NCBI GenBank assembly: GCA_963969595.1
Contig: OZ018414.1
Location: 22,923,660-22,987,659, forward strand
DNA length: 64,000 nt
Direction of reading: 5' to 3'
Source of the DNA: Neckera pumila
Taxonomy: Eukaryota; Streptophyta; Bryopsida; Hypnales; Neckeraceae
Shown here: one piece after another, positions 25,928 through 64,000 of the stretch
Layout of the letters: each line of letters begins with the position of its first letter
Numbering within the stretch: position 1 is the first letter of the stretch
The notes under the pieces: generated by a model
The model's database searches: none
The model's input: the letters and a program-made list of their open reading frames with translations, nothing else
What the model was told of the DNA's origin: nothing
Position numbers and translations under genes: made by a program

Positions 25928-26218
25928 TAAGGTAACTACACTACACCTTCAATCGCACAGTTAAGCAATTCAGCACGATGTAGCATGGTTTTCACTTTTA
26001 TATTGAAAAAAAATTGTGCGGTCCCAGTGGTTATCAAAACAAGATTCTTGAATGCATTTTTTGGACACCGTATGAATAGGCTACAAATTTCCAAAGTGAT
26101 AAGAATAAGTGTACCTAAAAGCAATTATAGAATCATATGAATAGTGGGAGTACATTTTAGGCAAAAATATCCATTGTGCAATTTTAGGAAGCATGCAATT
26201 TTAGGTGTAGTTGTCTTA
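25928..26218. mobile_element. MITE with AGGTAACTGCACC-type ends, copy 2 (291 bp)
   Basis: Ends TAAGGTAACTACACT and (reverse-complemented) TAAGACAACTACACC, with interior blocks (ATCGCACAGTTAAGCAATTC, GTGGGAGTACATTTTAGG) that are the reverse complement of 10147-10433. Confidence 0.68.
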
Positions 26219-26260
26219 AACCACATAAGAATTCAACCATTCACACTTGTGTTCGATTGG

Positions 26261-26487
26261 AACTACACTAATGATGGTATTTAGTGTTACCCACACTACT
26301 TGCTTTCAAAATGCCATAAATTATTACTCTTGATGAATATTTTTACCAACTACATTCATTAAGAACCGCAACTTTGGAACATATCGATACCTATGCCCTT
26401 GGTAAAAATATTCATGAAGAATAATAAATTATAACATTTTAAAATCAATTAGTGTAGGTAACACTATTTACCATCATTAGTGTAGTT
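26261..26487. mobile_element. MITE with ACTACACTAATGATGG ends (227 bp)
   Basis: AACTACACTAATGATGGTAT is matched by the inverted right end AACTACACTAATGATGGTAA, followed in both by TTAGTGTTACC or TAGTGTTACC. The pattern ACTACACTAA-ATG-TATTTAGTGT is shared with the CACTA-like element at 58723-59040. Confidence 0.75.
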
Positions 26488-27047
26488 GGCGTCCAATAGG
26501 ATAGGCTCATGAAAGTGATGACACAAAGGGAAAAACACACCCTTTTGAAGAGATCCGGCAAAAATACCAAAAAATTGAAACCCATCAATGAATGATCATG
26601 TAGATTTGCATTATATAACAACAATTTTATGTAATGTGACCCCCAAAGGTGCCATTAAGTAAGAGCATGTAAGGTAGGAGGCTCAGAAATGGAGCATCTA
26701 AGGGTTGGTCCGCCTTTTTCATGTACTTCCTTGGACGGGAATATTTTTAGCTCATTTTTCAGACAAAGAAAAATTGTTGAGGAATCTAAACCAAGCGGTT
26801 TCATATTTTTCCAAGAATTTTTGAATTACCATGAATTTTCAAACAAGTTGGGTCATAGGTCCCTATTTGTGAGCCTAGGTCTTTCATAAACGGTTCACTT
26901 GCAATTCTAAATAAAAATGGGGAAAGCAAAGAGAATGATTGGCTCTTGCAATTAATAATGCTTTTTTCCTTGATTTATTCAATGGCTATACTGGTTAATT
27001 CCATAACCAACTCATGTCCATTTCACAGCCATTTATAGGGTCCATTC
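26488..27047. other. No gene seen
   Basis: AT-rich spacer; a 66-codon ORF (26689-26889) has no recognisable features. Confidence 0.4.
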
Positions 27048-27978
27048 TTAACCTCTAAAGTTTCATGACTATGTAATCACCAAAAACGCTCCAAAACTGC
27101 CATTTCTAATACAACTACCAAATTTTTGGATAAAAACAAGTTTTGACACATGTAACCATAGGATCTTGTAGTATGATATTTTGAAAACATGTGGTAAAAA
27201 TTTCAGAAAATTCCACCGTGTAGATCATAAGATATAAGCATTCAAAGTCTTGAAAACCATTTTTTCAATCCTGCGAAAAACCGGGCAGCTGCACTTTGCA
27301 AGCTCACTTTTCAATGAAAAAATGCCGATAAAGGTGGTGCTTCTTTGAATTCAGTTTCCTAAACAAGTTTTCTATATGCATGAAAAATTTCACATCATTT
27401 GGAATTGTACAACATATAGGAAAAAAATAGTAAGTAGGAAGAAGTAGAAAATGACTCAAAATACTAAATTGTTAAAAATTTAATCATGGAATTTAAAAAT
27501 GCCAATCCCAACGGTTGTAATGTTGTAATAATCAATCTACATCCTAAGATTTTATTTTTTTCCAAAAATATTGAAAATTGAATTAAATAATCGATTTTAA
27601 AGTTTTATTTAGAGTAGAGAATCCATAACTGCCCGCAAAACAAAAACTCTCATAACTTTTGACTCATTGATTGAAATGGAGTGATTCAAAGCTTTTTAAG
27701 TATATATAAATGTAGAGAACCAATTTAAAAAAAAAATTCCGGAAAAAATGATTTTTTCTGATCTGCCCAAACTGCCCGGTTACGAAAAAAAGTAATATAT
27801 CAGGTCACAACTTTTGACTCGTATTTTGAAATGTCATGAAACTTGGTACACGTGAAGATATTCCTTGCCCCCACCTTCTATTAAAATTTCAGCCTCAAAT
27901 ATGGATATCTCTAGTCACACGTACCTGCCCAAAATTTCTATACGGCCAAAAAACGCATGTTGGTCCTTTAGGGGTTAA
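27048..27978 (+). mobile_element. TTAA-flanked TIR element, copy G (931 bp)
   Basis: Left TTAACCTCTAAAGTTTCATG; right, reverse-complemented, TTAACCCCTAAAGGACCAA; TTAA at both edges. The interior carries TAACCATAGGATCTTGTAG and is the plus-oriented counterpart of copies C and D. Non-coding. Confidence 0.72.
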
Positions 27979-28401
27979 TGCCCGCTTTGTTTTATAGCCT
28001 CCTACCTTAGTAGTCTTTGTTGAAAAGCTGCAACTCTGTTGTTGCTTGAGAACCTACAATAGTCATCAACTTGCATTTATTCTCACAATGCACATACGTG
28101 ACAAATCCTTGGCGTTAATTTAAAAAAAATTGGGTCATATTCAAATGCACATTGCTTCCTAATCTTTGCAATTTGCGCAAGGAGTTGTTTTGCATATTTG
28201 AACGGTGGATGAAAAAGCCCATTTCGGTGAGTTTAAGATGTGTTATCGTTCATTCATTGTTCAAAATCTGCACTCATGGTCCTTTAAGGGTTAAAAGCAG
28301 AGTCAAATCCCATAGAGAGCCACACGAGGGGCTTGCCATTTGGCTATCTCCTCTTTAAAATTTGAAGTGGCCAGGCTTTTTTAGCAAGTCCGCTTGGTTG
28401 T
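27979..28401. other. No gene; contains a probable short TTAA-element end
   Basis: GGTCCTTTAAGGGTTAA at about 28277-28293 reads as a right terminus of the short TTAA element type seen at 3424-3655. A left TTAA may lie at 28115. Confidence 0.4.
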
Positions 28402-28707
28402 CATTAGGAAAATTTCAGCCCTCTAGAAGGCCGCTAAGGAATTGATTTATGGGACCCTTTTGGTGCAATTTCAGACAAATAAAAAAATATTTTTTCTTAA
28501 AATATTTTTTTTGAAAAAGAAATATTAAAAAAATAAAATAAATTTAAAAAATATATTAAAAAAATATAAATCTGATGTGGCACTACTAGTGCCACATCAG
28601 CACCTAATTTTCAAATATTAAAATATATATATATATATATTTTCCATAATTGCACTGGGCGGGTGCCAAACTCGTGGCCTTCTAGAGGGCTGAAATTTTT
28701 TCTAATG
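28402..28707. mobile_element. CATTA-family MITE, copy 3 (306 bp)
   Basis: The left end CATTAGGAAAATTTCAGC and the block CCTCTAGAAGGCC are inverted at the right end. In the middle lies a near-perfect palindrome (28572-28600, CTGATGTGGCACTA with its complement and one central base) and a TA run (about 28623-28641). Confidence 0.72.
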
Positions 28708-29170
28708 CGTAGGGCAATAAAATTGGCTTGTCTCGCCAGTTCAGCAAGTCAGCCCCACTTGGCGAGTAGTCGTGGGGATGCTCTTAGAAACTAATGCAAC
28801 TCAATTCGGTGGTCAAAGCCTAAGGGTGATGGGTCTAAACTAATCTTGTAACCATGCAATGTTGCTCTAGACACTAAGCGTCCAATGGATGACAAAGAAT
28901 CCTTCTATATTCATCCTTGGAATTTGGGGTGAAAAACAGGAAGTCTTGAATAGTAGTTTGTAATAATTTGATATCCAATGAGGGCTCTTGGAGATTTTGT
29001 AAACAAATGATTCACATGGTATCCAAAATGATGATTTTCACGGTGACCAACTTGGTATTATTGGACTAATCTTAAAAGGGCATGGCTCCAATGACCAAGG
29101 TAGTCACCAAAATGCTTTGATTATTGGACCAATTTTTTTTTTTAAATGGCACTTTTTAGGTGTTTCTACC
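28708..29170. other. No gene seen
   Basis: Spacer without recognisable features. Confidence 0.4.
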
Positions 29171-30072
29171 TTAACCCCTAAAGTCCCAAGGCCATTCTTC
29201 TGTAAAAAAACAATCAAAACTGTCATTTTTGATGCATTCACCCAAGAACACAAAAAAAAACATTTTTTTAGAATCTAACAATAGGAACTTGTACTTCACT
29301 TGTCAAAGATCATGTGGTAAAAATTTCATGAAGTTTGACTAGATAGATTGGAAGATATTAGCATTCAAAGTTGAATTTTTTTTTTTTTGAACACTAACTT
29401 GCAATTTCATATAACTTTGACCGCCATTTGTGGAAATTTTTTGCACTACAAACTTTGAATTTCAAAAAATTTATTGAAAAATTGAGTGGAAAGTCTAGAA
29501 TTTTTTTTCAAATAAAACACACTTGATTTACTTTCTTCAAAATTTTTTTACGTAGAAGTTGGTTCAAGATTGAAAAAAAAACTAAATTGTTAATAGCTCT
29601 AAGATGGGATTGAAACACAATAATTCCAATGGTGAGATTGTTTTAGCAAGCAAACACAACCTTTCCAAACAATTTTTTTTTTTATAATTGTGGAAATTGC
29701 ATTCAGAAATGAATCCTACGAGTTATTTCTTCAAAAACATTGTCTATAACTTTCTCATTATTAGTCCAAATAGAATGAATCAAAGCTTCACATATAAAAA
29801 AATATAATATTTTAGAAAATAAAATAAAATAAAATTATTTTTGAATTTTTGCAATTTTTTGGGGGTTGACTACCAAGTTCAGTTCTAGGCTTTTTGTGGT
29901 ATAACTTTTGCTCCCGGTCACCAATTGAAAGAAAATTATATTCCCACATAGCTAATCAGTTTTCTTATCTTTATGAGAAAGTTTCCAAAAAATTCATAAA
30001 AAATTGAGGTCATAGGAACCTGTCCGAAATCCGATTTGTTCATCAAGGAGACAATAGAATTTTAGGGGTTAA
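29171..30072 (+). mobile_element. TTAA-flanked TIR element, copy H (902 bp)
   Basis: Left TTAACCCCTAAAGTCCCAA; right, reverse-complemented, TTAACCCCTAAAATTCTATTG; TTAA at both edges. The interior follows copies E and F (ATAGGAACTTGTACTTCACTTG, ATTGGAAGATATTAGCATTC). Non-coding. Confidence 0.75.
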
Positions 30073-35253: not shown

Positions 35254-38200
35254 TTACACGCCTCCAAAAATCTGCAATCAATCCAAAGTGTATGAAATTA
35301 TAATGCTTGTAGTACTACAAGACGTGTCTGGATATGACTCGCTACCTGAGAGTACAAGAAGGTCCCCCAAATTGCAATAGCAGCACCAAGGATGTTGATA
35401 GGCAAGATTTTTGTATGGAAGATGAGAATTGAGGACACAATAACAGTTACACGCTTTATGGTGTTCCCAATGCTGAAGGTGAGCGGAGAAATTTCATCCA
35501 ACGACATGTAGGACACTTGATTGTACAAGTGATAAAACACACTCTGCGCCGCAACCCACCTGCACATCACAATTATTTGGAAAGTCAAAATAACACAAAC
35601 TAATCACCACTGCACTTGCCTGACTCCCCATCCTTAAGATTACACTATTATTGATTTTAATGTTGGTAAAACTAAGGGACGCTTTAGGCTTAGAAGCCAG
35701 GCTAGAAATCTTCACTTGTGATTGGACTAAAGGCTGAAATCTGTACAATCGGTCTCTAGGTGTAAAGTGTCCCTAGTATTGGATGAATGCAATATTGGTA
35801 CCTATGCTAAATGTCAATTAAGGACTTATTGATAATTGAAAGTTCATGAATAGGGAGTCACCAATAAGTAAGCTGTTTAATTGAATTTGTACAACGATAA
35901 GTGAGTTAAATGACCAACAATGAAAATATAATTGATAGTGTAATATTTTGTGTGTCATGTGATAATTGTGGTTAAAAAATCAAATAGAATGCATCTAATA
36001 TTGTTTGATCCATCAATGTAGATGGAAATCACAAAACACAAAAAACAAACTCTCTAATCTACGTCATTGTTGGCAAACTATTTATTTGATGAAAGTTTTG
36101 AGTTCTATAATCTTACGGGTAGTTATTTTTAATAATGAATTTGAGTTTATACTCTCAAACAACATACTTAGTGATTGCACATTCTATGATATCCTCAAAA
36201 CTTGTCATATTGTGTACACATATGATTGTACAATTGTCACATGTTATTCAATGTTACACTGTTGTTTAGGATGACTCAAAATGTTCAGTGAATGACTTTA
36301 CAAGGTATCAAGGAATGCAAGTATTCAATCGTCTTATTAGAAGATAATTTTGTGGTTGATGATTATAGTAATGGACCTTTTGTTTCAGGGGTTAACCTAG
36401 TAAGGATGCCGATGATTGAAAATGTGTACCAAATGACTTTCAAAAAATTATAGGACCAAAAAATGTAAATATTCATTTTAGAATCTAATAATTTTTTGGT
36501 TGACTTCCTTGGTAATAGCGCCTTATTCTTCAAAGGTTAATTGCAATCATGTGTGAGAGCATTTAGACACCCATTATCTTGAGACATGTCATTAGAGGGG
36601 TTAGGCGGTACCATAATACTTGATTGCCATGGGTAAGGTTGGCAGCTTTCCAACCAGCAATCCAAACTTTTGGACCTTCAACGACTAATGCAAAAGGAGT
36701 CAAGATTGCAAGCGACATCATGCTTAAGCATGCGTAGTAGTTCATGCCTCCAATATTCTTGCTCTTGTTGGACATGCCTTTTTTGGAAAATATATTGCGG
36801 AACACAAAAGCAACATTGGAGATCATAGCCCCCACAAATCCTGTCCACCAACAATGACATTGCCCTTTTACTCCCAGAAAGTAGTCCATAAATTTGCAAC
36901 CTAGATAAACCATTCTTGAATAGCCAAAGTATCTTACAAAATCTATGATTGTAGTTGGAGAAAGACCTATCATGTTGAAGTGGAGCTCGGTGGCAGCTGC
37001 TAGTGTACAACCTCCAATAATAGGTAGGAGCGAGAGATATATTAGCAAAGGAAAGCGCTCTCCAAAAATCAATCTTTGGATGAGTACACTGAAGGCAGGC
37101 TCCGCGCTTTTGATGATGTGCGTGAAAGATATGTCCACCTTCGACATGCTCACAGTTGCTGCCACATGACCAATTGTGTGTGCTATCGCGACCTATTTGA
37201 GATGCCAAACCAATGGTTGGATGTATCAACACTTCATTATGCTAAGTCAAGTATTTGGGGCAATTGTATCATTGCCCCAAACACTGTTGGGAAATCAAAA
37301 TAGGGTTGTCATACTTAGTCCTTCTTTTTATAAGCCCTTAGATAAGCCAAAAAGTATTGAATGTGTGTAATTAAGTAGTGAGGCTTGGCATGACTGTATA
37401 TACAATAATGCCTTTGAGCCTCCTTGCTCTTCAAGCATTATTTAGTTCTAATTTTAGTATTCACTCATTGAATAACGAGGTGTATGCTATTTTCCAAAAC
37501 CCAACTATTGAGGTTATGTCTGGTAACATGAATCATTATAGATATAATGTCCCTTGTCACTCCCATGGGCCATAGCTCAACATCTTACTTCTAGTGTATT
37601 GAAGTTGTACTTTCACAATTTACCTAATCTATAACACTAAAGAAAGACAGGCTTACAAGACACAACTAAATATGCTATTTGTTTGCAATGCTAGACTGTT
37701 GCAAATATAGTCAGTTCATTGAGAATTCCAAGGCAATAACTTTTTAGAGGTTAGATAATAAACACAAGTATACATACATGAGCTTCAAATAAGATAATTG
37801 AATACAGACGTAATCCAAAGCATGAAAAGTGAATTGATAATCAAGTTGAAGCACAATTATACCGGAGCAAGGTGCTTCCAAAATTCACAATCCACTTGAG
37901 GGGCTTCCACAATCTTGAATGCCCACGAAACAAGCATAATGGCTGACCCAGCAGCAAGGGAGAGGGTGGATGTCAACCAAGGGAACGGATACACATTCAA
38001 CACCTTCTTGTTATAAATGTTGAACACCACATTCAAACTCCACCAAATGGCAAAATAGAGCCCAATTTTAAGCTTTGGAGGTACTACAGCATCCCCCGCC
38101 TTGACATCAATTCGAGGCTTTGGAGGTAGGCTTGGTCTAATATTTTCTTCTGCCTTGGCAATAGGAGACTTCTTGATAAATGAACACTTTTCCTTACAAA

Positions 38201-38417
38201 CTGGTGCTACATTCAAAGATTGACCACGAAGAAAAGGGATTAATTTTGAACTTGGCACTGGTTTGAGGGTTGATAGGTTGATGGTGCTAACATATTGTAA
38301 CTTGGAACGGGAATGAGAAATTGGTGAAAAGAGTCTAGATGGGTGCTTGATGGTACGGAATTGCAGCAAATTGGGGCTGTATGTCGAGGCCACATTGAAC
38401 AAAGCATGTGAATTCAT
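35254..38417 (-). CDS. GPT: Plastid glucose-6-phosphate/phosphate translocator-like protein, 5 exons, 413 aa
   Basis: It exchanges a phosphorylated sugar (glucose 6-phosphate in the GPT class) for phosphate across the inner plastid envelope, feeding starch synthesis and the pentose phosphate pathway. Exons: 38417-37863, 37192-36967, 36840-36612, 35559-35346, 35271-35254. All splices keep frame and rebuild family blocks. The start is the ATG at 38417; the next frame opening upstream is only a TTG. Residues 1 to about 105 are Ser-rich, transit-peptide-like. The hydrophobic core begins near [10 protein letters not shown]. Conserved pieces include [15 protein letters not shown] (Lys 213), [14 protein letters not shown] and the Lys372-Arg373 pair in GNTIKR, which in this family binds phosphate. 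The motifs favour GPT over triose-phosphate or PEP translocators, though substrate is inferred. Intron 2 has a weak GTCTTT donor, is 126 nt long and stop-free. The last exon encodes only five residues and is the least certain. Confidence 0.9.
36841..36966 (-). other. Stop-free 126-nt intron 2 of the translocator (exitron-like)
   Basis: The donor GTCTTT is weak and the acceptor is GGACAG. Splicing joins ...NMIG to FVGAMISN exactly as in the family. Length is a multiple of three and there is no stop, so retention would insert 42 residues between membrane segments instead of ending the protein. Confidence 0.75.
37485..37640. repeat. Dispersed repeat R3, copy 3, inside intron 1 of the translocator
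   Basis: Carries CCAACTATTGAGGTTATGT, GGTAACATGAAT, CACTCCCATGGGCC and TTTACCTAATCTATAACAC in the order of copies 1 and 2. Confidence 0.48.
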
Positions 38418-38496
38418 TGGAATGTCTTGGGTCTCACACAAGTGAGGAGAACATCTAAATTAGATAACAACTTCGGGATGTCTTTAAATTCATGTT

Positions 38497-48600: not shown

Positions 48601-50927
48601 TTAATCCCTAAAGGACCAAGATGGCGAATTTTATTAAAATGGCCAAATTCCGTGTGCTATTTTCCATACCGTGTCGTCTGACAAATCTGGGGTTGTTGTA
48701 CATTTCAAACATCTAAGAATGGTATAAATTTTAGACCGTGCGGTCTAAAATATACAGGAGTGCTCTAGATTTTAGGTATCCAAGACTGACATAGTTTTTA
48801 ATAATCTAAGATAGGTACAAATTTCACTTATAGATTAAATTGTTTAGACCGCATGGTCTGCACTGTTAGAAGTGCCAAAAATAACAAAATATGGCCATTT
48901 TAATGAAATTTGCCATCTTGGTCCTTTTTGTGCCGAAAAACTCTCGAAATTGCCATTTTTGTAGCAAAGAGTAAGAAAATTTGAAAATTGTTTTTTTGGC
49001 ACATATAATTGTAGGATCCAGGGCTTTTTTTTGGCACCATGGTCCCAGATTGTCAGAATTTTGGCCTATGTTCGTCCCTCCCTCCAAATACTGGCCTCTG
49101 TTGTGAAGCTAGAGGGGGGTATACTGGTCCAAAAAAAAAGCTTTGGTAGGATCTTACACCAAACTAGTATGATAATTTTAAAAAAAAATCCAAAATTTTT
49201 CACTGCAGACATTGCAAGATATTTGCATTCAAATTGAAAAAAAAAAGTTTTCCAATTCATTGCGGGACAAAATTATTTGACTTTGCACCTTTTGAACTTC
49301 AATTTTTTGCACTCTAGAATTCTGATCTTCCAATCTTAATTAGTGTGCCTTGTGTCGCTGTCTTAGCTAAAATCATAGTAAAAATAATTGTCTAATTTTC
49401 TAATTCATAACAAAAACTTTGAAATTTAATATCTTTCACACCATCATTCCAAAAGCCACAAAGCAAAGCTTGTCCACCTCTCCTTGCCAAGAGCTTTGCA
49501 GTGGTACCACCAACGCAACCAAAACCAAAGTAAGAGTAAAATTTCTAATTTTTTGATACATAAACACTTTAAAATTCAATAACTTCTGCACTGTAGGACC
49601 AATCGCCACAAAAACAAGCTCGCTCACCTCCTCTTGCTAAGAGTTTACCGACAATATCAAGCACGCGGCCATGGAACACACAATCCGGGAGATCTCAATG
49701 TAACAAAACAAACAAATAAACAACCAAACTTAAGGTATGGATGGTGGAGAATCGAGCTCAAAGTATAGGGAGGGAAAATCAAGAAAACTTTATTTTTATA
49801 CTTCAAAAATTTATTAAATAGAAGTAGGTACAACATAGAAGGAAAATCTAAATTATAATACTTGTAAAATAGAATTAAAATGTACTAATTTCAATGGTAA
49901 GATTGTTCTAGCTAGCAAGCAAATTGAATCATGTGGAATTTTTTTTTTCCAATTGTAAAATTGCATTCAAAATTGAATCCTACAAGTTTATTTTCCAAAA
50001 TGATGGTCTAATTCCCCAAAGAACAAGACTAGCTATAACTTTCTTATAACAAATCCAAATGGAATGAATAAAAGCTTTCCAGATGGACGAAAGAGTGCAA
50101 AAAAATAAATTATAGCATTGAACTTGAACATTATTTCGCACCAACTTCAGAATTTTCCACCATGTAGATTGCAAGATATTAGTGTTCCAATTATGAAAAA
50201 TCCTTTTCTTGTCCCTGTGAAAAATTGGGCAGCTGCACTTCACAAGGTCACATTTGTATGAAAAATGGTCCAAAATGGTGGTCACACTTTGGATTCATTT
50301 TTAAAGTCAAGTTGGCTACATGCTTGAAAAATTTCAGATAATTTGGAATTGTACAATATATAGGAAAAAAATAGTAAGTAGAAAGAAGCAGAGAATGATT
50401 CAAAACACTAAATTGTTAAGAGTTTAATTATAGGATTGAAAAATGCCAATTCCAATGGTTGAAATGTTGTAATAAACAATCTACATCCGATGTTTTTATT
50501 TATTTTTATCAAAAATACTGAATTTGAGTTAAATAAAGGACTTCAAAGTTTATTTTAAAGTAGAGATTTCACAACTACCCGCAAACTAAAACTCCTCATA
50601 ACTTTCATCTCATTAATCAAAATGAAATGATTCAAAGCTTTTTATGTACATATAAATCTAGAGAACCAAATTCAAATTCATTTTTTTTTAAAAGTAATTT
50701 TTATAGGAATTTTTTGAGTTGCTCGCCGTGCATTGAAAATCATGTATCATACAATAACTTGTTAACCATGCAGTCAAAAGTTATGAAAATTGTTGGGCCT
50801 CAAAGCTACTCTTTGGGAAAATGTTGTGTAAAAATTTCAAAGAAAAAAAATATAAACTCCGCTTGTAGTGAGCTACCCAAAAAATGCTATGTTCTCAAAA
50901 AAGTATGTTCAATGCTTTAGGGGTTAA
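48601..50927 (+). mobile_element. Composite TTAA-flanked element, copy I (2327 bp)
   Basis: It opens TTAATCCCTAAAGGACCAAG and closes CTTTAGGGGTTAA, both edges TTAA. The first part follows copy A and the last part follows copies G and D, so it is a mosaic or a nested pair. It also contains an inserted MITE (48613-48924) and two copies of the window-start repeat (49440-49530, 49575-49700). Confidence 0.55.
48613..48924. mobile_element. MITE (312 bp) inserted at the end of composite element I
   Basis: GGACCAAGATGGCGAATTT (left) and its near-exact inverse ending at 48924 continue into ATTAAAATGGCC, about 30 bp in all. Past 48924 the sequence resumes the copy A pattern (CCTTTTTGTGCCGAAAAACT), so the MITE interrupts the TTAA element about 20 bp from its end. 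Inside, GACCGTGCGGTC and GACCGCATGGTC are small palindromes. Confidence 0.7.
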
Positions 50928-51604
50928 GCTATTCACATTATTGTAAAGTAATGTTACACCTTTCAAATCGTAAAGGAGTGGAAATATTTTGCTTCATGAA
51001 CAATACAATGTTTCTACTTCTAATTTGTAGGATATAGTTTTATTGTCTCAATATTGTTTTCTCTATCCAACCTTAGAAACTCATCCTATAATATGAAAAG
51101 AATGTGCTCTAAAATGTTCACAATTCTTTAGTGTATAGAGTAGAAATTACATACGTTTGAAGTGAGAAAATGCAAAAATACAAATGGCCCACAATTTGTA
51201 GCCACATATTCATCATATTCTTTTATAACTATTCCACTCTAGAGACTTGTCACTCTTCAATTTCACAATGTACATTAAGTCAACTACTTGCATACAAAAA
51301 TTGGACATGGCCATTTGTAAGGTCTTCGTCTTTAAAATATGATGCATTGAAATTTTGTAAAACAGAAGTACTGATTTAGGCCAAATTTATTCATGGTTCA
51401 AGTACAAAGGCCATAATAATGGTTTCCCAAATGGTCCAATACATTCAATACATTCATTTTGGAAATCCTAATTGTATAGTAATTTCATATTGCAAATTCC
51501 AACTCATTTGCATACCTTCCTTTAGTGTGTACTAATATGCCTTATGCCGTTTCCATAGTCAAAACAAAAATAAAATAAATGGTCTAGTTTGCAAAAAAAT
51601 TAAT
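50928..51604. other. No gene seen
   Basis: AT-rich spacer without recognisable features. Confidence 0.4.
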
Positions 51605-53160
51605 CTTCAACCCTTAAAGTCCCAAACACCAATTTTTTGGCAACATAGATATTTTGGGCAATTCACTAAAAATGTAATTTTTATTTTTATATTTTGAAAT
51701 TGTCACGCAACACATGGTCAAGGAGTACCTTGAAGGCCAAATCATTTTTATAACTTTGATTACTTGGTTGAAAATTTATTGCATGATATGAATTTTTCTG
51801 GCAAGGACAGGCAGTTTGGGCACATCTTAAAAAATCATTGTTTTAAGAAATAAAAATTTGAAACTGGTTCTCCAGATTTATATAAGGTAGAGGCACCCAT
51901 TGTCAATCTTTTAAGGGATTTCCTAGCAGATCATCAGCAGTTTGTGACAAAGCAAATTTTTCTCATGTAAAAATATAGGAAATATGGGGACTAAAAGTTC
52001 TTCATATTTTTATTCCCAATGCTAAAATTATTGTGAAATTTTGGGAGCCAAAAAGTACTCAATACCAATAGCCGATCTCTAGACTCTTCTAATTCCGATC
52101 CGTCATGAACTACTTTTTTGCTCACTACTTTGGGACATGTGTCACAACCTTATTAGTCCATACCTTGAAAAAACACATTCCAAGCTTAGATTGGATTTGT
52201 TTAGGTTTGTTCCAGCTAAGATCGGAAATAGTATCCCCTATAGATTGGGAATGGGTCCAAATTGACAATGGGTGCCTCTCCCTTATACATAGAAAACTTT
52301 GCATCATTCAATTTTTGATCAATGAGTCTAAAACTATGAGGAGTTTTAGTTGTAGACAGTAGGCGGGTAGTTATGGAAATTCTACTCTAGAATAAACTTT
52401 GAAGTCCTTTATTTAACTCAATTTTCAATATTTTTGAAAAAACAAACAAACATTGGGTGTAGGTTGTTTAGTACATCATTCCAACCGTTGGAATTGGCAT
52501 TTTTCAATTCCATAACTAAATTCTTAACAATTTAGTATTTTGGATCATTCTCTATTTCTTTAGAATGTAGCCAATTTGCCTTGAAGAATGAATCAAAGAC
52601 GCACAAGCATTTTGGACCATTTTTTCATACAGAAGTGATCTTGTCAAGTGCATCTGCTCTTTCTTTTGCAAGGCAAAAAAAAGGATTTTTTGTCACTTCA
52701 AATGCTAATATCTTGCAATCTACACGGTGAAAATTTCAGAAATTTATATCCACATCTTTTCAAACTAGCGTACTACAAGATCCTACAGTTACATGTGTTT
52801 GAAAATGCTTTTTTTCTAAAATTTGATACTTGTACTATAAATGGCCCTTGTGGAGCGGTTTTGGTGAAAACATAGTCAAAAACCTTTAGAGGTCTAAATC
52901 CCATTGTCTCTGTGCGGATGAAAATGCATTTGAATAGGCTCCTATAGTCTCATTGATTCTCTTGATTTTCTGAATTTTTCTTTAAAGACCAAAAAATTGT
53001 AAGCTTCCAAAAAATATAATTTCTATTTCAAGTGGTGCCTAGGAGCAAAAGTATGGCAAAAAGCCTAAATTCTAGTTTGGCGTGAAGAACATAAAATTGA
53101 AATAAAAATAAAAATAATTTTTTTTTAATACCTAAACGACCAGGGGGGGGGGGGGGTGTC
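51605..53160. mobile_element. Decayed, overlapping TTAA-element fragments
   Basis: AACCCTTAAAGTCCC at 51609 and CCTTTAGAGGT at 52876 look like the two ends of a copy related to C and D, with an unrelated stretch at about 51885-52300. A second, reversed fragment runs from about 52900 to TTAATACCTAAACGACCA at 53126. The termini are eroded, so boundaries are approximate. Confidence 0.45.
53144..53156. repeat. Poly(G) run, 13 bases
   Basis: Thirteen consecutive G sit right behind the TTAATACCTAAACGACCA terminus. Such a run is prone to slippage and could be a local sequencing error. Confidence 0.85.
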
Positions 53161-53643: not shown

Positions 53644-54828
53644 GTTCAAGTAGCCTACTATGTAATTCTAATATGCGCTCATGTTTTGTGTTATCATTCA
53701 TTTCAAAAGCAATTCTTAATCCTTCCCTTCTAGCTCCATCGTGGGTAGGACCAATCTTCATAAATTTGTGTTGCAACAAATTCAAAGGCTTAAAATATTT
53801 ACCATCAAATGCAACCCTCTAATCTATGTATATCAAATGCTTCCCCGTAATGGTTTCTACATAATCTGTTCCTTTTCCGAACTATTGACTTGCGTTGCAT
53901 CCTTCTGCCATTTTCTTTTTTCATTCGATAGAAGTTGTAATAAGTTGCACCAAAGAACACATGCATTTCTCTCTTATACCATACATAGATGAATTGAGAT
54001 ATTTGGGCTTTCATAGACCTGTACATGTTCTAAGTTATGCGACTTGACAGCAACATCGTCTCCAACCTTGTATAGAACTCCCCGTAGCATACACTTTTTA
54101 ATGTGCGTGTAAACTTATGTTCCCTAACACTCTACTTGAAAATAAATTTGTAAGAAGTTAGCCAATCTAGCACCGACGGCTTTAGGGCGTGCTCTCCTAC
54201 TCGTCTTTGTTCCAATCAAGATCCCTTTGGAATTGGCTATAGATGAACATGTAGTCTTTGGTGTATTTATTAACAACTTATTGATCTTTTTGGCAGCCTC
54301 AATGGTGGTGCAAGAAAGGAAGTGTTTCTGGTGCCAGAGTGGACAACAAGAAGTATCATAGTTGTTTTCTTCATTTGGATAATGAGATAAATGCAAATAC
54401 TTATGAAGTTCAATAAGTGCTCTTCCAGACATATCCATTCCATCACTCTCTGCACATACACTTACTTCTACATTTTGAAATTGCCTCCGAGTGTAGAATT
54501 GAACAAATGTTTGTTCAACTTGTTTGTCATTAGAATGTATATCTTGATATTTCTGAACCTCTCTTTCATATGGAAAACACCAATATACATTCGAGTGACC
54601 CAATCTCAACACATCCTCCAAGATGTGTCTTGCACCTGCAACATGCTCTAAAGGTCTTCCATTTGGACCATATTAATCTTTTGACAGAATTCGCCATGTT
54701 TGAAGTAGTATTCTCACATTTTGTAGATCTGTTGTTGTCCATCCTTTGATGCGAGTCTCATTGAAAATATAATGTGAAATATCAATGAGACACAACCCCA
54801 TGTCTAAGAGTTTGTGTAGAAAGAAAAT
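53644..54828 (-). pseudogene. C-terminal part of TNP2-like CACTA transposase, broken
   Basis: Minus-strand reading from 54828 gives a coherent protein: ETRIKGWTTTDLQNV, a TAA stop near 54676, then GRPLEHVAGARHILEDVL and YWCFPYERE, which resembles the conserved Trp/Phe-Pro-Phe-Glu-Arg block near the end of plant TNP2-type transposases. After the frame ends at 54124, further pieces continue in shifted frames (KVGDDVAVKSHNLEHV; REMHVFFGATYYNFY; FDGKYFKPLNLLQHKF) to a stop at 53644. That is one nonsense change and at least two frameshifts. It is most simply the downstream part of the transposase at 57110-58189, separated by non-coding DNA. It lies outside the inverted-repeat arm seen here. Confidence 0.62.
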
Positions 54829-57109
54829 TTAGATAAAAATAGTAAATTTAGAATAAAACTAGCTGTGAGGGGCCCTTTGTAGGAAAAAGTAGAAGTAAAA
54901 TAAAATATAAAAGTTAAAATGCATTTTATAGTGTAAATAGGTTCATGCACAAGAATGAATGAAAATGAAAATGAAAACTTGGATGAATGAAGTGTGACTT
55001 AGGCCAGACCTCTTTATAAACACACCGGGTGTTTTTTCTTAGAAAACTATAAAAAAACTAAAAAAAAATAAGCAAACATTGGCAAATGTGTAAGTCCCAA
55101 TTATATTGAAATATATATTTATTCTTGTGATTATTATTCTTGTGTGTGTGTTGAATTGTATTTTTTATTATTATATGTGTGAGAAATTAGGGTTTGTATG
55201 TGTTCGTATTGGATTCTGTACTGTATTACGATTGTGGAATTGCGAATTGATCTGGGCGCTGGAGAAATTCTGGTCGTAGCTGGAAAGACCAAAATTGTAC
55301 GGAGTTCGCTGAGAGAGCCTGTCTGATCGGGAATTAAGTGAGTGAGAGTAGGTGGAGTGCAAGAAGGCTGGAAGAAGATCTCGGAGCAGTGGGAGGCTGT
55401 CGAAGTTGCAGCGGCAATGGCTCCACATGACTGATTACTCTGATCTGCGAGGGTGTGACAAATTCACGGAGAGAACCCTGTCTGATGAAGAGTGCAGTAG
55501 GCGAGAGCAACAAGATCTGAATTGCTAGGTTGATCGTGGAGAACCTATTGGAGGGGAAGCAAGTTAAAAAAAATCAAAATTTGATCAATTCGTCAAGCAC
55601 TGGTCAGCAAACCTTGACCTGGTGAGTAATTCTTTGTTGTTGTTGTTTTTGACAATCAATATTCGGTGTGGATTCACAAGATTGAAATCCACGATCAAAG
55701 CAACAAGATGGCGACAAAATACAACGAGCATTTTGAGAAACTTGGCAATCTGAAGTGCGAATAGCGCAGCTCATGCAATAGAAGCGACGGATCAAATTTT
55801 TTTTTTCTTCTTCTTCTTCGATTGTCGTGAATTCTCAATGACTGTAGTCGATCAACTGAGAAGCCCCACCACTCACAATTGCGGAATTCCACAAACCAGA
55901 GCAAATTTGGATGCAAAAATTGTGAAATTTTAGATAAAAAGTTGCACTTGATTCAATCTCATTGCAAAAGAATGAAAATTATAAAATTTTGGGTGAATTT
56001 GATTGTTGTGGGCTTCTAATGCACTGATAGATTGGTTGCGCAAGCAAATCCTCAAGAAATTGCAGAAATTGCACCCAAATTGAATTCTTTTTGGTGATCA
56101 GAAAGCATTGCGCAGTTTGTGGAAGCTTGCTACGTTGAAATCAGGGTTCACACGGTCTTGGGATCTCCACTGCGCGGTCATAGGGTCCCAATGTCCATGG
56201 TCATAGGGATTGCAGTCCACGGATATAGGTCTTTTGACCATTAATTTGTAAATTTCAGCGTTTTCAGGGACTATTTTCAGATTTTAAGTTATTATAATAT
56301 ACATGTAAATATATATAGTTGATTTCTGAATATTATTTTATATGCTTGTGGTTTTAGATCCTTGGGTTATTATGTGTAAATTTATATATACATATATTGA
56401 CGTTTTGGTTTATGTTTTTAAATCCTTTGTGTCTTGCTGATTGCTTTATTCCACTTTAAATCTTATGTTTGATATGATTACATGAATTGTAAATTATTTT
56501 TTTTAGTTTTGGTCATAAATTTTATATGTGGTGAAATTGCAAATTATTCCAAGGGTATGTTTGTATGTTAACACTTGTTGGTTTGGATTCATTTGACATA
56601 ATTTGGCAAAAGCGAATAAGAAATATTTGACATCATCATACATTGCACAACTAGGAATCATTTGATATAGAATACGGAAACACTAGACATTCTTGCATGA
56701 TCGCATTAGCTATAGATTGACTGGACTATTTGACATAAAAACATAAAAAGGTATAATGAACAAATTATATATATACTATTTTATCAATACTATCTTGTTA
56801 TGATTACGTCCTAATGCATGCATCATATAAGATTCATTTGACAAAACTTGATTTATTTGACAAAGAATGATTTGACCTCCCTTAGAACACTATATAGGAC
56901 TGGGACTTTATACATACATTGGTAATGGACTAGCCAACAAATTTTACACACAAAAATAAGAGTGATATAATATTATACTAAATTTGTAAATACAAATCTA
57001 TTTGTAAGTGACTTTTAGTCATAAAACATTAGACTGATTAAACCTTTCCCTAGAACAAAGACCCCCCTATACTAATGTTCCTGGGTTTTGTAGAAGTGCA
57101 AAATCTAGT
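54829..57109. other. Non-coding DNA between two transposase parts
   Basis: No transposase-like frame was found here. The stretch 55170-55620 is less AT-rich, with TTAGGGTTTG at its start and GGTGAGTAAT at its end, like a plus-strand leader exon and splice donor, but no long ORF. A CTT run lies at about 55800-55820. From 56169 on, it belongs to the inverted-repeat arm. It may be a large intron or an insertion. Confidence 0.4.
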
Positions 57110-58189
57110 TCATAGTTTGGAATTCATACGTTCTTCTTTGTTCAATGCATATAGTACACTTGGTAGCACCTACTGAATAAATTTTTGGTTTTCTTCTGCC
57201 ATAAAAGAATTGCTATACTCAAATGGGTTGTTTCACCAACGTCCCCCTCTTAACTCACAAGGGCGTGGCTCTTCCACTCCTGTACACATTTCTAATATTC
57301 TTGTCTTTTTATCTGCATCGTCGCCAATCCACATGAACAAATTCTTGATGTATGACTTGAAAATGTTCAAGCCCATGATGTGCATTACATCGTACACAAG
57401 GTCTACTGAAAGGTCAAATCCATATAGATGATATAGTGTCCACAAAGAAGACTCTCCACATACACCTGTTCTTTGTCCATGACTAATGAATGCTTTTTTT
57501 GGATTAGCAGGCAACCGATTCCAACCACGCACATCTTGCCATAACTGTGCAATGCTACATTTTTCAGGAGCATGGAAAATTTGCTTGCAATTATGGCCAT
57601 ATACATAATGACCATCTTTTAGCTCAATATGCATTTTGCACCTTCTACAAAGGGACTTCCTAGGTTGTTTCAATTTTCCCATTTTGCATTGAGCAGGGTG
57701 ATCCCTTATCACAAGCATCAATATTGCCCTTATGTTAGAGTCTCTTGGTATATTTGGAAAATATTTGCTCATGATAGACTGCGGATAGTCCATGTTGAAA
57801 CCATCATAATATAATTCTTGGAGCTCCTTAATGAATGGATCTAACAGTTTAACCATCGACTCTTTAATTCTTTTTTCCACCACTAAACTTGCACCACCGA
57901 TTTTGGAGATGAATGTTGTCAGAATGAAAAGCACAAGAATGAGTTCAATTGGGTTTGTTGTTCTTGCACTTAAGATGGCAACTTCTAAAACCCAGCTACT
58001 TTGATTGTAGTGTTTTGAAATAGTAAATCCATCCCAATGAGCAGCCAACGCTACATTGCGTGGGTCGCCCTTTACCATCTTCTTTACAGATGAGACCTTT
58101 TCCAAACAATTCCAACAATCAAAATCATACTTCTTTGCTTCCTCATTCTATGCAGAAATACTATTGATCTTTGGAGGTACATTAGACAT
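57110..58189 (-). pseudogene. TNP2-like CACTA transposase, N-terminal and core part (left-arm copy)
   Basis: From the ATG at 58189 the frame has a TAG at codon 14, then 290 open codons, then TGA, TAG and TGA with clearly coding sequence between them (NPFEYSNSFMAEENQKF; VLPSVLYALNKEERMNSKL). The open part shows the TNP2 plan: AAHWDGF, LLDPFIKELQELYYDGF, DHPAQCKMG followed by a Cys-x2-Cys pair, and YDVMHI, matching the DVMHI block of Transposase_21 proteins. It would cut CACTA-type ends. The stops are shared with the right-arm copy, so it was already dead before the duplication. Confidence 0.72.
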
Positions 58190-58722
58190 ACTTAAAATCA
58201 ACTTCACACAAATCTATCTTACAAAATAAATTGTAATAAGTATTTCCAAGGGTGGTCTAATTTTCAGTAGAGTTCATTTTCATTATAATTAATTCTACAA
58301 TTTATTGAAATAAATCAAAATTTGATGTCATCTTTAAATTTTTTTTGTATTAATATACATACAAAGGAAATTTCAAGTAAATGTTTTCATCTTTTGCTTT
58401 AACATACTATTAAGAAATTGTAGAAAAAAATCAAAATCATTTGAAGGTCATATGCAAAAAAATGAAGTGGACTTTTATGGATGTATTTCTACCAACTTTG
58501 ATCCAGCGTAGTGTGCATTTGCCCCTTGACCTTTGATGGATGAATGCATTGATGGATGAACTAATTCATGATCAAAATGTACACTAGTGGATAAGTAGAG
58601 ATCGACTGGTGATAAATATCTTGAGATGGTGGACTAGTGTACTGGAATAAGACAATTCTAGTTAGATGGATATCTATAAAAGATGGATTTATTTAGTGGA
58701 GTTAGATAGCTCCAATTGGACG

Positions 58723-59040
58723 ACTACACTAAAAATGATATTTAGTGTAGTATGACATTTAGTGTTTTACCCCCCTACCAGCCACAACACTAAATCTGAA
58801 TTGTAGCGGATTTAGTGTTGTGTTGGACTTCAATGCGCCGCCTCTGCCACCGCCTCCGCTTCCTTTGCAAGTTCATTTTTTTAACCTGTTCTAACACTAA
58901 ATGTAAACCTTTTCAGATTTCAGATTTACCATAGAGCATATTTAGTGTTAGAAATTAGATTTAGTGTTACTTATTTATGATATTTAGTGTCAAGGTTCGT
59001 AATTAGTGTTGCCAACACTAAATATCATTTTTAGTGTAGT
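58723..59040. mobile_element. CACTA-like MITE (318 bp), left-arm copy
   Basis: The ends ACTACACTAAAAATGATAT are inverted repeats. Between them the motif ATTTAGTGTT, or its inverse AACACTAAAT, occurs about ten times on both strands, the subterminal-array layout typical of CACTA elements. It lies about 530 bp upstream of the transposase start. No clear target duplication was seen. Confidence 0.72.
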
Positions 59041-59357
59041 GCGCTGATATATTTAAAATTTACCAAAGCATTTTTAAAAGTAAATCACTAATACTTCAAT
59101 TTCGTCCACTACTTGTTATATTAATTCTAGTTCAAGTACTACTTTTAATTTAAAAATAGGTAAATCACATAAAAAGTAAAAGATCAAGGTTCTACACCTT
59201 ATTATATAAGAAAGGGAGGAGATTGAATATCAATTTATGTAGTTGAAATATATCACTGATATTTATGATTCATACTTATAAAAGAATTGAAGCATAACAT
59301 ATCATTTGTTAGTATTCATAGTTGTTTCAAACTGTATTTTTATCTTTTGTTTTTACC

Positions 59358-60712
59358 ATGACTAGCCTTGCAACATTATGTTCCCGTTGCCAACACAAAT
59401 TTAAACGTACGTCTTATAAATATTGCCCTATGTGTGGCACTCCTTGTTTGCCGTTTCCAATAGATGGTTTTTCTACTGACAAATTAGAAGTAGAATCTGC
59501 TACAGGCCTACAGGGACTCATAGGGTGCAAGGTCTTCCTATTCCAAGTTATGAACAAATTTATGTTCATCATCCTCAGAGCTTGAAAGAGGAAAGCAAGT
59601 TGTATGGAAAGAAGTTTCTTTTAGCATATTACATTGATGAGTATTATAAATTCATGAATAATCAACAAAAGGCAAAAGGGTGGCTACAAAAAGACAAACT
59701 TGTAAACCAAAATTTGGAGGGGAGTTGAGAAGAATGGAGGGATATTTTGAAAGCAATATGCGAAGCCAGGTCTCCACAAATGGAGTTGCTAGATTTTGGA
59801 AAGATCCAAATGCCTTGGCGACCAAAAGAAGTTTACACTTACTTATTAGAGCACACGGAGAATTTGAGGAAATACAACAAAAGCAAACGCATGAGAACAA
59901 TTGATATAAGTGTTTCTAATTACTTTTTCAATAACATTTTGTAATTGCCATTTCTTATATGTCATTCACTTGGATGAAAATTATTCATAAAAAGTTCAAT
60001 ATTTAGTGTAGAAGTGTTCTGTCTCCTCTGGTTTCATTGAATCATGTTTCATTTCTTTTTTTCTAGTAATTAATGCATTCCAACTGATACATTTGAGGCC
60101 ATTGAAATGTATTGTCTGTAATGAATTTTGTAGATGAATCTTAAAGGAGTGGGCAACCAGGCTGCAGAAGTGGGCAGTCCTGAAATTCAAGATCGCCTAC
60201 CACAATTGGAAGTTGCAGAAACTCAAAGTCCAAAGGTATATAATTTGCAGTCATCAATGTTTACTAATCATTTCATCTCCATTTTATTCAAATGTTCACT
60301 TATTTGTGTTCATAATGTATAATAATACAATGCTTGCCTTAACTAAATTAAGGATGATGTGTAGGCACCACCTTCAAGTCATGAAAAAGACTTGAGACCA
60401 CAACGTCAAAGACAACCAACAAGAAAGGCAAATGAAGGAGATTATCAACGCAAGAAGAAAAATAGAGGGAAGGCTCCAGCAGAAGATGACAAAAGTATGG
60501 ATGATTTCACATTGAAAGATGTTGAATGGACCATCCGACAGCATTTTCAATACAAAAAGGTGGATGATATAGCAAGTCACATCTAGATGTAGCCTTGGAT
60601 GGATGAAATGCTATAGAAAGAACAAATCGTTATAGCAAGTGGAAGACATATGAGTACAAGAAGAAGGTAAAAAAACTAGCTTATAAGTTAAATGAAATGA
60701 ATGAAAATTAAA
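59358..60712 (+). pseudogene. Second transposon gene with N-terminal zinc ribbon, broken
   Basis: It fills the spacer of the inverted repeat, starting at the ATG at 59358, 25 bp inside the boundary. The first 30 residues hold Cys8-x2-Cys11 and Cys23-x2-Cys26 (LCSRCQ ... YCPMCG), a zinc ribbon. A frame change near 59505 leads into GLPIPSYEQIYVHHPQSLKEES; a TGA at 59726 interrupts before EEWRDILKAICEAR. Two further exons are clear: 60134-60235 (MNLKGVGNQ to QSPK, then GT) and 60365-60585 (APPSSHEKDL, then a basic RKKKNRGK stretch); a shifted remnant KWKTYEYKKKVKKLAYKLNEMNEN follows. No family is recognised. A DNA-binding helper protein of the CACTA element is a guess from position and composition. 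Confidence 0.5.
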
Positions 60713-61128
60713 AAACCCCTAAGGAACAATGATACTTCAGGGGAAGTTAAACCCTACATAATAAGTCATGACTTTCACTAATGTTGTTTAGAACTCTACA
60801 TTCATTAATAAGTGCTTCTGCAGTACAAAATACTAAGTTTGAAACAACTATGAATACTAACAAATGATATGTTATGCTTCAATTCTTTTATAAGTATGAA
60901 TCATAAATATCAGTGATATATTTCAACTACATAAATTGATATTCAATCTCCTCCCTTTCTTATATAATAAGGTGTAGAACCTTGATCTTTTACTTTTTAT
61001 GTGATTTACCTATTTTTAAATTAAAAGTAGTACTTGAACTAGAATTAATATAACAAGTAGTGGACGAAATTGAAGTATTAGTGATTTACTTTTAAAAATG
61101 CTTTGGTAAATTTTAAATATATCAGCGC

Positions 61129-61446
61129 ACTACACTAAAAATGATATTTAGTGTTGGCAACACTAATTACGAACCTTGACACTAAATATCATAAATAAGT
61201 AACACTAAATCTAATTTCTAACACTAAATATGCTCTATGGTAAATCTGAAATCTGAAAAGGTTTACATTTAGTGTTAGAACAGGTTAAAAAAATGAACTT
61301 GCAAAGGAAGCGGAGGCGGTGGCAGAGGCGGCGCATTGAAGTCCAACACAACACTAAATCCGCTACAATTCAGATTTAGTGTTGTGGCTGGTAGGGGGGT
61401 AAAACACTAAATGTCATACTACACTAAATATCATTTTTAGTGTAGT
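61129..61446. mobile_element. CACTA-like MITE, right-arm copy
   Basis: Mirror of 58723-59040; its presence in both arms shows the MITE was inserted before the inverted duplication. Confidence 0.72.
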
Positions 61447-61979
61447 CGTCCAATTGGAGCTATCTAACTCCACTAAATAAATCCATCTTTTATAGATATC
61501 CATCTAACTAGAATTGTCTTATTCCAGTACACTAGTCCACCATCTCAAGATATTTATCACCAGTCGATCTCTACTTATCCACTAGTGTACATTTTGATCA
61601 TGAATTAGTTCATCCATCAATGCATTCATCCATCAAAGGTCAAGGGGCAAATGCACACTACGCTGGATCAAAGTTGGTAGAAATACATCCATAAAAGTCC
61701 ACTTCATTTTTTTGCATATGACCTTCAAATGATTTTGATTTTTTTCTACAATTTCTTAATAGTATGTTAAAGCAAAAGATGAAAACATTTACTTGAAATT
61801 TCCTTTGTATGTATATTAATACAAAAAAAATTTAAAGATGACATCAAATTTTGATTTATTTCAATAAATTGTAGAATTAATTATAATGAAAATGAACTCT
61901 ACTGAAAATTAGACCACCCTTGGAAATACTTATTACAATTTATTTTGTAAGATAGATTTGTGTGAAGTTGATTTTAAGT

Positions 61980-63059
61980 ATGTCTAATGTACCTCCAAAG
62001 ATCAATAGTATTTCTGCATAGAATGAGGAAGCAAAGAAGTATGATTTTGATTGTTGGAATTGTTTGGAAAAGGTCTCATCTGTAAAGAAGATGGTAAAGG
62101 GCGACCCACGCAATGTAGCGTTGGCTGCTCATTGGGATGGATTTACTATTTCAAAACACTACAATCAAAGTAGCTGGGTTTTAGAAGTTGCCATCTTAAG
62201 TGCAAGAACAACAAACCCAATTGAACTCATTCTTGTGCTTTTCATTCTGACAACATTCATCTCCAAAATCGGTGGTGCAAGTTTAGTGGTGGAAAAAAGA
62301 ATTAAAGAGTCGATGGTTAAACTGTTAGATCCATTCATTAAGGAGCTCCAAGAATTATATTATGATGGTTTCAACATGGACTATCCGCAGTCTATCATGA
62401 GCAAATATTTTCCAAATATACCAAGAGACTCTAACATAAGGGCAATATTGATGCTTGTGATAAGGGATCACCCTGCTCAATGCAAAATGGGAAAATTGAA
62501 ACAACCTAGGAAGTCCCTTTGTAGAAGGTGCAAAATGCATATTGAGCTAAAAGATGGTCATTATGTATATGGCCATAATTGCAAGCAAATTTTCCATGCT
62601 CCTGAAAAATGTAGCATTGCACAGTTATGGCAAGATGTGCGTGGTTGGAATCGGTTGCCTGCTAATCCAAAAAAAGCATTCATTAGTCATGGACAAAGAA
62701 CAGGTGTATGTGGAGAGTCTTCTTTGTGGACACTATATCATCTATATGGATTTGACCTTTCAGTAGACCTTGTGTACGATGTAATGCACATCATGGGCTT
62801 GAACATTTTCAAGTCATACATCAAGAATTTGTTCATGTGGATTGGCGACGATGCAGATAAAAAGACAAGAATATTAGAAATGTGTACAGGAGTGGAAGAG
62901 CCACGCCCTTGTGAGTTAAGAGGGGGACGTTGGTGAAACAACCCATTTGAGTATAGCAATTCTTTTATGGCAGAAGAAAACCAAAAATTTATTCAGTAGG
63001 TGCTACCAAGTGTACTATATGCATTGAACAAAGAAGAACGTATGAATTCCAAACTATGA
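61980..63059 (+). pseudogene. TNP2-like CACTA transposase, N-terminal and core part (right-arm copy)
   Basis: ATG at 61980, TAG at 62019-62021, open to TGA at 62934-62936, then TAG at 62997-62999 and TGA at 63057-63059, all in one frame. The 290-residue open part is identical to the left copy (AAHWDGF, DHPAQCKMG, YDVMHI). Here the transposase reads in the same direction as the zinc-ribbon gene at 59358, 1.3 kb upstream, which may be the original two-gene order of the element. The C-terminal part, if present, lies beyond the window. Confidence 0.72.
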
Positions 63060-64000
63060 ACTAGATTTTGCACTTCTACAAAACCCAGGAACATTAGTAT
63101 AGGGGGGTCTTTGTTCTAGGGAAAGGTTTAATCAGTCTAATGTTTTATGACTAAAAGTCACTTACAAATAGATTTGTATTTACAAATTTAGTATAATATT
63201 ATATCACTCTTATTTTTGTGTGTAAAATTTGTTGGCTAGTCCATTACCAATGTATGTATAAAGTCCCAGTCCTATATAGTGTTCTAAGGGAGGTCAAATC
63301 ATTCTTTGTCAAATAAATCAAGTTTTGTCAAATGAATCTTATATGATGCATGCATTAGGACGTAATCATAACAAGATAGTATTGATAAAATAGTATATAT
63401 ATAATTTGTTCATTATACCTTTTTATGTTTTTATGTCAAATAGTCCAGTCAATCTATAGCTAATGCGATCATGCAAGAATGTCTAGTGTTTCCGTATTCT
63501 ATATCAAATGATTCCTAGTTGTGCAATGTATGATGATGTCAAATATTTCTTATTCGCTTTTGCCAAATTATGTCAAATGAATCCAAACCAACAAGTGTTA
63601 ACATACAAACATACCCTTGGAATAATTTGCAATTTCACCACATATAAAATTTATGACCAAAACTAAAAAAAATAATTTACAATTCATGTAATCATATCAA
63701 ACATAAGATTTAAAGTGGAATAAAGCAATCAGCAAGACACAAAGGATTTAAAAACATAAACCAAAACGTCAATATATGTATATATAAATTTACACATAAT
63801 AACCCAAGGATCTAAAACCACAAGCATATAAAATAATATTCAGAAATCAACTATATATATTTACATGTATATTATAATAACTTAAAATCTGAAAATAGTC
63901 CCTGAAAACGCTGAAATTTACAAATTAATGGTCAAAAGACCTATATCCGTGGACTGCAATCCCTATGACCATGGACATTGGGACCCTATGACCGCGCAGT

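What the first reader, a model, noticed from the sequence alone, without database searches (positions are those of the whole stretch)
56169..64000. Apparently perfect inverted repeat, at least 3165-bp arms and 1502-bp spacer, built from a dead CACTA transposon
Seen: 56169-59333 and 60836-64000 are reverse complements with constant coordinate sum 120169, so no net indel; the 290-residue frames are identical and share the same nonsense codons. Inference: the transposase was broken first and duplicated inversely later, very recently or under gene conversion. A transcript across it would form a very long hairpin, a known way to start small-RNA silencing of transposons (as Mu killer does for MuDR in maize). 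An assembly error is the main rival explanation.
Basis: partly seen in the sequence, partly recalled or inferred. Interest (0 to 1): 0.82.

Follow-up and report, generated by a model that had tools for sequence, protein, structure and literature searches.

The report
Inverted copy of dead moss transposon
A decayed jumping gene, probably in a moss, appears as two perfect mirror-image copies around a second decayed gene that probably belongs to the same jumping-gene family; this looks like a very recent mirror duplication (or an assembly error), and nothing here shows that it switches other jumping genes off.

Summary
The right arm is cut by the window end, so the outer end is unseen. The arms hold a broken TNP2 (CACTA) transposase fragment with three shared stops, a 318-bp mini-element with CACTA-like ends, and part of a 2.3-kb insertion splitting the transposase, whose remainder lies further left at 54813-53822. 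The spacer holds a broken gene with a zinc-ribbon-like start. Relatives of it and of TNP2 both list a 373,688-base contig, so spacer and arms probably belong to one transposon family. A transporter gene 18 kb away groups with mosses, where CACTA elements are reported to be abundant. Best reading: a real, very recent inverted duplication of an already dead element. Main rival: assembly error, untestable because the genome search did not complete. A Mu-killer-like silencing role is possible but unsupported: no transcript, small-RNA or live-target evidence, and in Physcomitrella inverted repeats are very numerous while small-RNA hotspots are few. If it acts, about 21-nt RNAs from the arms are expected. 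Ordinary in kind; modest interest.

The parts
56169..59333 (+). Left arm of the palindrome (seen part; the true outer end is unknown)
   Evidence: exact reverse complement of 60836-64000
60836..64000 (-). Right arm, cut off by the end of the window
59334..60835 (+). Spacer between the arms, 1502 nt
   Evidence: no match continues inward beyond chance (698 of 3000 and 453 of 3000 random pairs score as well, at two gap costs)
59358..60711 (+). Broken gene with a zinc-ribbon-like start inside the spacer; model of three exons 59358-59911, 60134-60235, 60365-60711; frameshift about 59495-59510, stop 59726-59728, frameshift about 60570-60584, stop 60604-60606
   Evidence: relatives P0020-P0025, exon 1; frames and stops computed, splice sites chosen by eye; exons 2 and 3 not confirmed by a relative
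57113..58213 (-). TNP2 transposase pseudogene part in the left arm; residues 1-93 of relative P0001 have no match in the window
61956..63056 (+). Mirror copy of the TNP2 part in the right arm
53822..54813 (-). C-terminal part of the same TNP2 pseudogene, left of the seen arm (three stops, two frame changes)
   Evidence: P0004 residues 173-501
54814..57112 (.). Insertion of about 2.3 kb splitting the TNP2 gene; AAACT (coding strand) at both borders; six TTTGACA motifs on one strand
   Evidence: P0004 runs across this point without a gap, P0010 and P0011 with 8-9 unmatched residues, P0015 with 23
58724..59041 (.). Mini-element with 25-bp perfect terminal inverted repeats of CACTA type and TTTAGTG repeats; a 3-bp target duplication is not convincing
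61128..61445 (.). Mirror copy of the mini-element in the right arm
   Evidence: Coordinate sum 120169

Best explanation
A real and very recent inverted segmental duplication of an already dead CACTA (TNP2) element in a moss-like plant genome. The original locus held a decayed transposase gene, already split by a 2.3-kb insertion and carrying a mini-CACTA insertion, beside a decayed zinc-ribbon-like gene that probably belongs to the same family. One event, most likely fold-back or template-switched repair synthesis, copied at least 3165 bp in mirror orientation on the far side of that gene, giving arm-gene-arm. Shown: exact identity, shared lesions, nested insertions, gene contents. Inferred: that the structure exists in the plant, the repair mechanism, and that it is functionally inert or nearly so.
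For: 0 of 3165 differences with the same three stops in both copies and the same nested insertions, so the copying came after the decay. The relative P0004 runs without a gap across the insertion site, so the left copy is collinear with a whole gene apart from that insertion; whether the right copy is too lies beyond 64000. The spacer gene's relative P0022 and the TNP2 relative P0001 both list a longest contig of 373,688 bases, with 3 member sequences and 1 contig each. The 1502-bp spacer, which has no second copy in the window, is not what a simple missed-adapter read gives (recalled). CACTA elements are reported as the largest share of the terminal-inverted-repeat transposons in the moss Ptychostomum knowltonii (that class is 29.13% of the genome) and as 6.8% of Sphagnum, so the raw material is common.
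Against: No read or second assembly was available; perfect identity is also what a mis-joined copy would show. The inner junctions show no homology beyond the arms that would mark a fold-back point, and the outer junction lies outside the window. The orientation of the two genes in an intact relative is unknown, so which inner junction is the new one is not settled. The host assignment rests on one gene, whose best hit by E-value is a Brassica cretica protein (57% identity).
Confidence: 0.55

Rival explanations
1. Assembly or read artefact: a chimeric read or a wrong walk through the assembly graph re-used the left arm in reverse, so the plant carries one arm only.
For: Perfect identity. Palindromic chimeric reads are a documented artefact of amplified libraries (47.8 and 43.6% of reads in two Arabidopsis WGA sets); [quoted passage not shown]
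Against: A simple missed-adapter palindrome has no spacer (recalled); here 1502 bp holding a gene lie between the arms. If the host is a moss, sampled tissue is normally haploid (recalled), which lowers the chance of mixing two haplotypes.
Confidence: 0.32
2. An older palindrome whose arms are kept identical by gene conversion, as on human and ape Y chromosomes.
For: Shared lesions and perfect identity are equally expected; gene conversion between palindrome arms is described for the Y chromosome (cited in PMC5490193, passages).
Against: No trace of older divergence at the inner ends; the identity runs to a sharp edge. In the springtail genome paper a wide range of Ks was taken as evidence against concerted evolution as the explanation of its palindromic blocks.
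Confidence: 0.08
3. A Mu-killer-like silencing locus: transcription across the palindrome gives a hairpin RNA with a stem of at least 3.1 kb that is diced and silences live CACTA copies in trans.
For: Architecture fits: partial inverted duplication of a transposase gene, as described for Mu killer (PMC3440606, passages). In Physcomitrella, many of the 21-nt small-RNA loci have all their small RNAs on the arms of one inverted repeat (PMC2600652, passages).
Against: No promoter, transcript or small-RNA data. Physcomitrella has 132,656 inverted repeats but only 52 of the 21-nt loci, and those loci overlapped no interspersed elements other than LTR retrotransposons. The nearest relatives found are 69-77% identical in protein at best, in my judgement too far for siRNA targeting, and no other copy lies in the window at E 1e-6. 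Skibbe et al. report short antisense transcripts in effective Mu killer plants and say that these cannot form large hairpins, while allowing that minor longer transcripts might.
Confidence: 0.05

Closest known systems
Mu killer (Muk) of maize, derived from MuDR
   Same: Partial inverted duplication of a DNA transposon's transposase gene; long hairpin potential
   Different: CACTA, not Mutator; the gene was already dead before the copying; a second, probably related gene sits in the loop; outer ends unseen; no silencing data
CACTA (En/Spm) elements with TNP2 transposase (Pfam PF02992)
   Same: TNP2 homology; CACTA-type terminal repeats on the nested mini-element
   Different: N-terminal residues of P0001 missing, split by an insertion, own ends not recognised; second gene of unknown family with a zinc-ribbon-like start
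Physcomitrella inverted-repeat small-RNA loci (among Pp21SR)
   Same: Inverted repeats in a moss genome, diced from a single transcript
   Different: Arms here are 100% identical against a genome-wide median of 79% in Physcomitrella; no small-RNA data here
Palindromes in animal genomes (springtail, rotifer, Y chromosomes)
   Same: Inverted segmental duplications, arms able to undergo conversion
   Different: Those described are palindromes of gene blocks; this one is transposon-sized

Membership tests
CACTA/TNP2 transposon | TNP2 transposase (PF02992) | tested here: met
   E 7.9e-6 but 25.7 bits, below Pfam's cut-off of 28.6 (a broken fragment); of 19 relatives found, 8 carry PF02992 as precomputed domain
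CACTA/TNP2 transposon | Own terminal inverted repeats starting CACTA, with 3-bp target duplication | tested here: inconclusive
   only the nested mini-element shows such ends, one with G for the first C; its flanks do not match as a 3-bp duplication; the TNP2 element's own ends were not recognised
Mu-killer-like silencing locus | Partial inverted duplication of a transposase gene | tested here: met
Mu-killer-like silencing locus | Transcription through the palindrome and small RNAs from the arms | not testable with these tools
   No expression data available
Mu-killer-like silencing locus | Live, near-identical target elements in the same genome | tested here: inconclusive
   None in the window at E 1e-6; the genome search did not complete
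Foldback-type transposon with long terminal inverted repeats | Arms end at both outer borders in target-site duplications | not testable with these tools
   The outer end lies beyond position 64000

The most novel reading that the evidence does not exclude
The palindrome is a newly born silencing locus in a moss: a CACTA element that duplicated onto itself in mirror form and, when transcribed, makes about 21-nt small RNAs against its own family, caught at the stage when the arms are still identical.
Probability: 0.05. Interest if true: 0.7.

Novelty: new member of a known kind. Interest (0 to 1): 0.3.

Why it matters
If real, it is a young, undiverged inverted duplication of a transposase gene in a moss-like genome, the kind of structure proposed to start small-RNA silencing of transposons. 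Its age can be bounded (95% upper limit on arm divergence 0.00095) and its small RNAs could be measured directly. If it is an assembly error, it is a warning against reading palindromes from assemblies alone.

Tried and rejected
Homology of the spacer ends beyond the arms: not better than random pairs. Rfam scan of the window: 0 matches at gathering scores. Search for missing TNP2 N-terminal pieces in 58150-61000: TNP2 relatives gave only hits of E 0.14 or worse, none to residues 1-93 of P0001. Other copies of arm or spacer in the window: none at E 1e-6 for 53128 onward apart from the palindrome itself. Terminal repeats of the 2.3-kb insertion: no clear terminal inverted or direct repeats; I considered a solo LTR (ends TG...CA plus one T) and left it undecided. 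Solved structures: one weak match, E 0.0057, a protein called P9-1, not taken as homology. Host genes between the transporter and the TNP2 pseudogene: the six frames of 110 aa or more between 38460 and 53800 gave no Pfam match above a cut-off. Literature: 9 searches. One search found 0 papers holding its five terms. In the listings of the other eight (10 to 12 rows each, 8) I saw no paper on a CACTA palindrome in moss, which is weak evidence of absence. PMC3565333 (passages) was looked at and not used. One search failed through a script error of mine and was redone; one search stopped part-way after printing the translations, and the rest was redone.

Full report
Observation. Positions 56169-59333 and 60836-64000 are exact reverse complements, 3165 of 3165 positions. 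The repeat finder gives the same pair, and the next of its 22 inverted pairs is 188 nt at 82%. With the right arm left out, the longest exact inverted match in positions 1-60835 is 45 nt, and 15-18 nt in five shuffles. The left limit is imposed by the end of the window, so the arms are at least 3165 nt.

What the arms hold. The minus-strand frame 57236-58147 (304 residues; 303 of them plus the stop codon were submitted) matches Pfam Transposase_21, family tnp2, at E 7.9e-6 and 25.7 bits, under the curated cut-off of 28.6. Its database search gave 19 relatives at E 0.001 or better among 909 candidates, the best four 69-77% identical over 44-86% of the query; 8 of 19 carry PF02992. P0006 and P0013 are named as Riccia sorocarpa proteins. 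P0004 (501 aa) aligns without gaps as residues 1-174 on 57634-57113 and 173-436 on 54813-54022, then on to 53822 in two other frames. So one transposase gene runs from 58213 to 53822 and is split by 2299 bp at 54814-57112. The codons at the two borders share AAACT, as expected of a target-site duplication. P0010 and P0011 cross this point with 9 and 8 unmatched residues, P0015 with 23, so the 2.3 kb looks like an insertion rather than an intron common to the family. Residues 1-93 of P0001 have no match in the window.

Order of events. The three stops in the 349 codons of the N-terminal part are identical in both arms. The part of the insertion inside the seen arm (56169-57112) and the mini-element at 58724-59041 are mirrored too. 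The mini-element has 25-bp perfect terminal repeats, 7 plus 4 TTTAGTG motifs and a fold more stable than 100 of 100 shuffles; one end reads CACTA, the other GACTA, and a 3-bp target duplication is not convincing. Decay and both insertions therefore came before the inverted copying, unless gene conversion homogenised the arms later. With no difference in 3165 positions the 95% upper limit on divergence is 0.00095; at assumed rates of 1e-9 to 1.3e-8 per site and year this is about 473,000 to 36,000 years (the rates are recalled, not measured in this host).

The spacer. It holds a gene on the plus strand that begins with a zinc-ribbon-like motif (12 weak Pfam matches, all below their cut-offs, best DZR_2 at E 0.00028). 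Six relatives were found among 19 candidates, 62-72% identical. My model has three exons from 59358, which is 24 bp inside the left junction, to a stop ending at 60711, 124 bp before the right junction. Exon 1 is supported by relatives; exons 2 and 3 rest on open frames and splice-like sites chosen by eye. The gene is broken by a frameshift near 59495-59510, a stop at 59726-59728, a frameshift near 60570-60584 and a stop at 60604-60606. P0022 (spacer gene) and P0001 (TNP2) both list a longest contig of 373,688 bases, with 3 member sequences and 1 contig each. I infer that they lie on one contig and that the spacer gene is the companion gene of this CACTA family. Their distance and orientation there are unknown, the other relatives list other contigs, and two separate elements on one contig are not excluded.

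Host. A sugar-phosphate translocator gene at 36566-38459 (minus) matches Pfam TPT. Its search returned 938 proteins at E 1e-60 or better among 2826 candidates, 120 listed; the first row by E-value is a Brassica cretica protein at 57% identity, and Physcomitrium and Ceratodon follow within the first six rows. I put 34 of those 120, chosen by me for spread, in a tree over 225 columns. The window's gene falls beside one Physcomitrium paralogue (support 0.842; 0.966 with P0029) inside a group of Physcomitrium, Ceratodon and unnamed sequences (0.989), with Sphagnum next to it. Over those columns it is 78.6% identical to Physcomitrium, 77.7% to Ceratodon and 75.9% to the fern Adiantum, so one gene is thin evidence. 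[quoted passage not shown]

Mechanism. The most likely course is a repair or replication event in which a strand folded back or switched template and copied at least 3 kb in mirror orientation. No homology marks the inner junctions (698 of 3000 and 453 of 3000 random pairs extend as well), so this step is inference. A missed-adapter palindrome would have no spacer (recalled), but a wrong walk through an assembly graph could give this structure; no reads were available, and the genome search machine did not answer 12 identical requests.

Silencing. Mu killer is the apt comparison (PMC3440606, abstract and passages). That paper could not sequence its centre, found in the plants that silence short antisense transcripts that cannot form large hairpins, and kept the long hairpin only as possible for minor longer transcripts. 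For mosses, the Physcomitrella DCL3 paper (PMC2600652, abstract and passages) gives 132,656 inverted repeats with median arm identity 79%, and 52 Pp21SR loci. [quoted passage not shown] the Pp21SR loci overlapped no interspersed elements other than LTR retrotransposons. So in a moss the expected product is about 21 nt, and the prior that any one inverted repeat is such a locus is low. No host gene that could read through was recognised between 38460 and the TNP2 pseudogene: the six frames of 110 aa or more there gave no Pfam match above a cut-off; shorter exons were not examined.

Verdict. Observation confirmed; interpretation partly supported; probably a real but ordinary recent inverted duplication of a dead transposon, with assembly error as a serious rival.

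Noticed in passing
12771-14693 (-) and 14654-15088 (-): A 641-residue open frame with hAT dimerisation domain and a weak DUF4371 match, overlapped by a frame with a zinc finger (zf-C17orf113): a possibly little-damaged hAT transposase gene.
   Followed up: partly
12449-12726: Tandem array of a 61-bp unit, 4.6 copies, 94% matches, next to the hAT frame.
   Followed up: no
17580-17779: Short hairpin-like inverted repeat, 91-nt arms 90% complementary, 18 nt between them; MITE-like.
   Followed up: no
36566-38459 (-): Plastid-type sugar-phosphate translocator gene (TPT family) that groups with mosses in a small tree.
   Followed up: yes
280-1120, 9119-9906, 18592-20065, 24141-30062, 50110-53127: Interspersed diverged repeat families (about 65-93% identical) in both orientations, one matching up to about 53127, left of the TNP2 pseudogene.
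   Followed up: partly
54814-57112: 2.3-kb insertion (34% GC) with six TTTGACA motifs on one strand and a GC-richer stretch at about 55150-55900 (43%), possibly captured or LTR-like sequence.
   Followed up: partly
59358-60711 (+): A gene family with a zinc-ribbon-like start and no Pfam model reaching its cut-off for the four pieces tested, with six database relatives; perhaps an undescribed CACTA accessory gene of mosses.
   Followed up: partly
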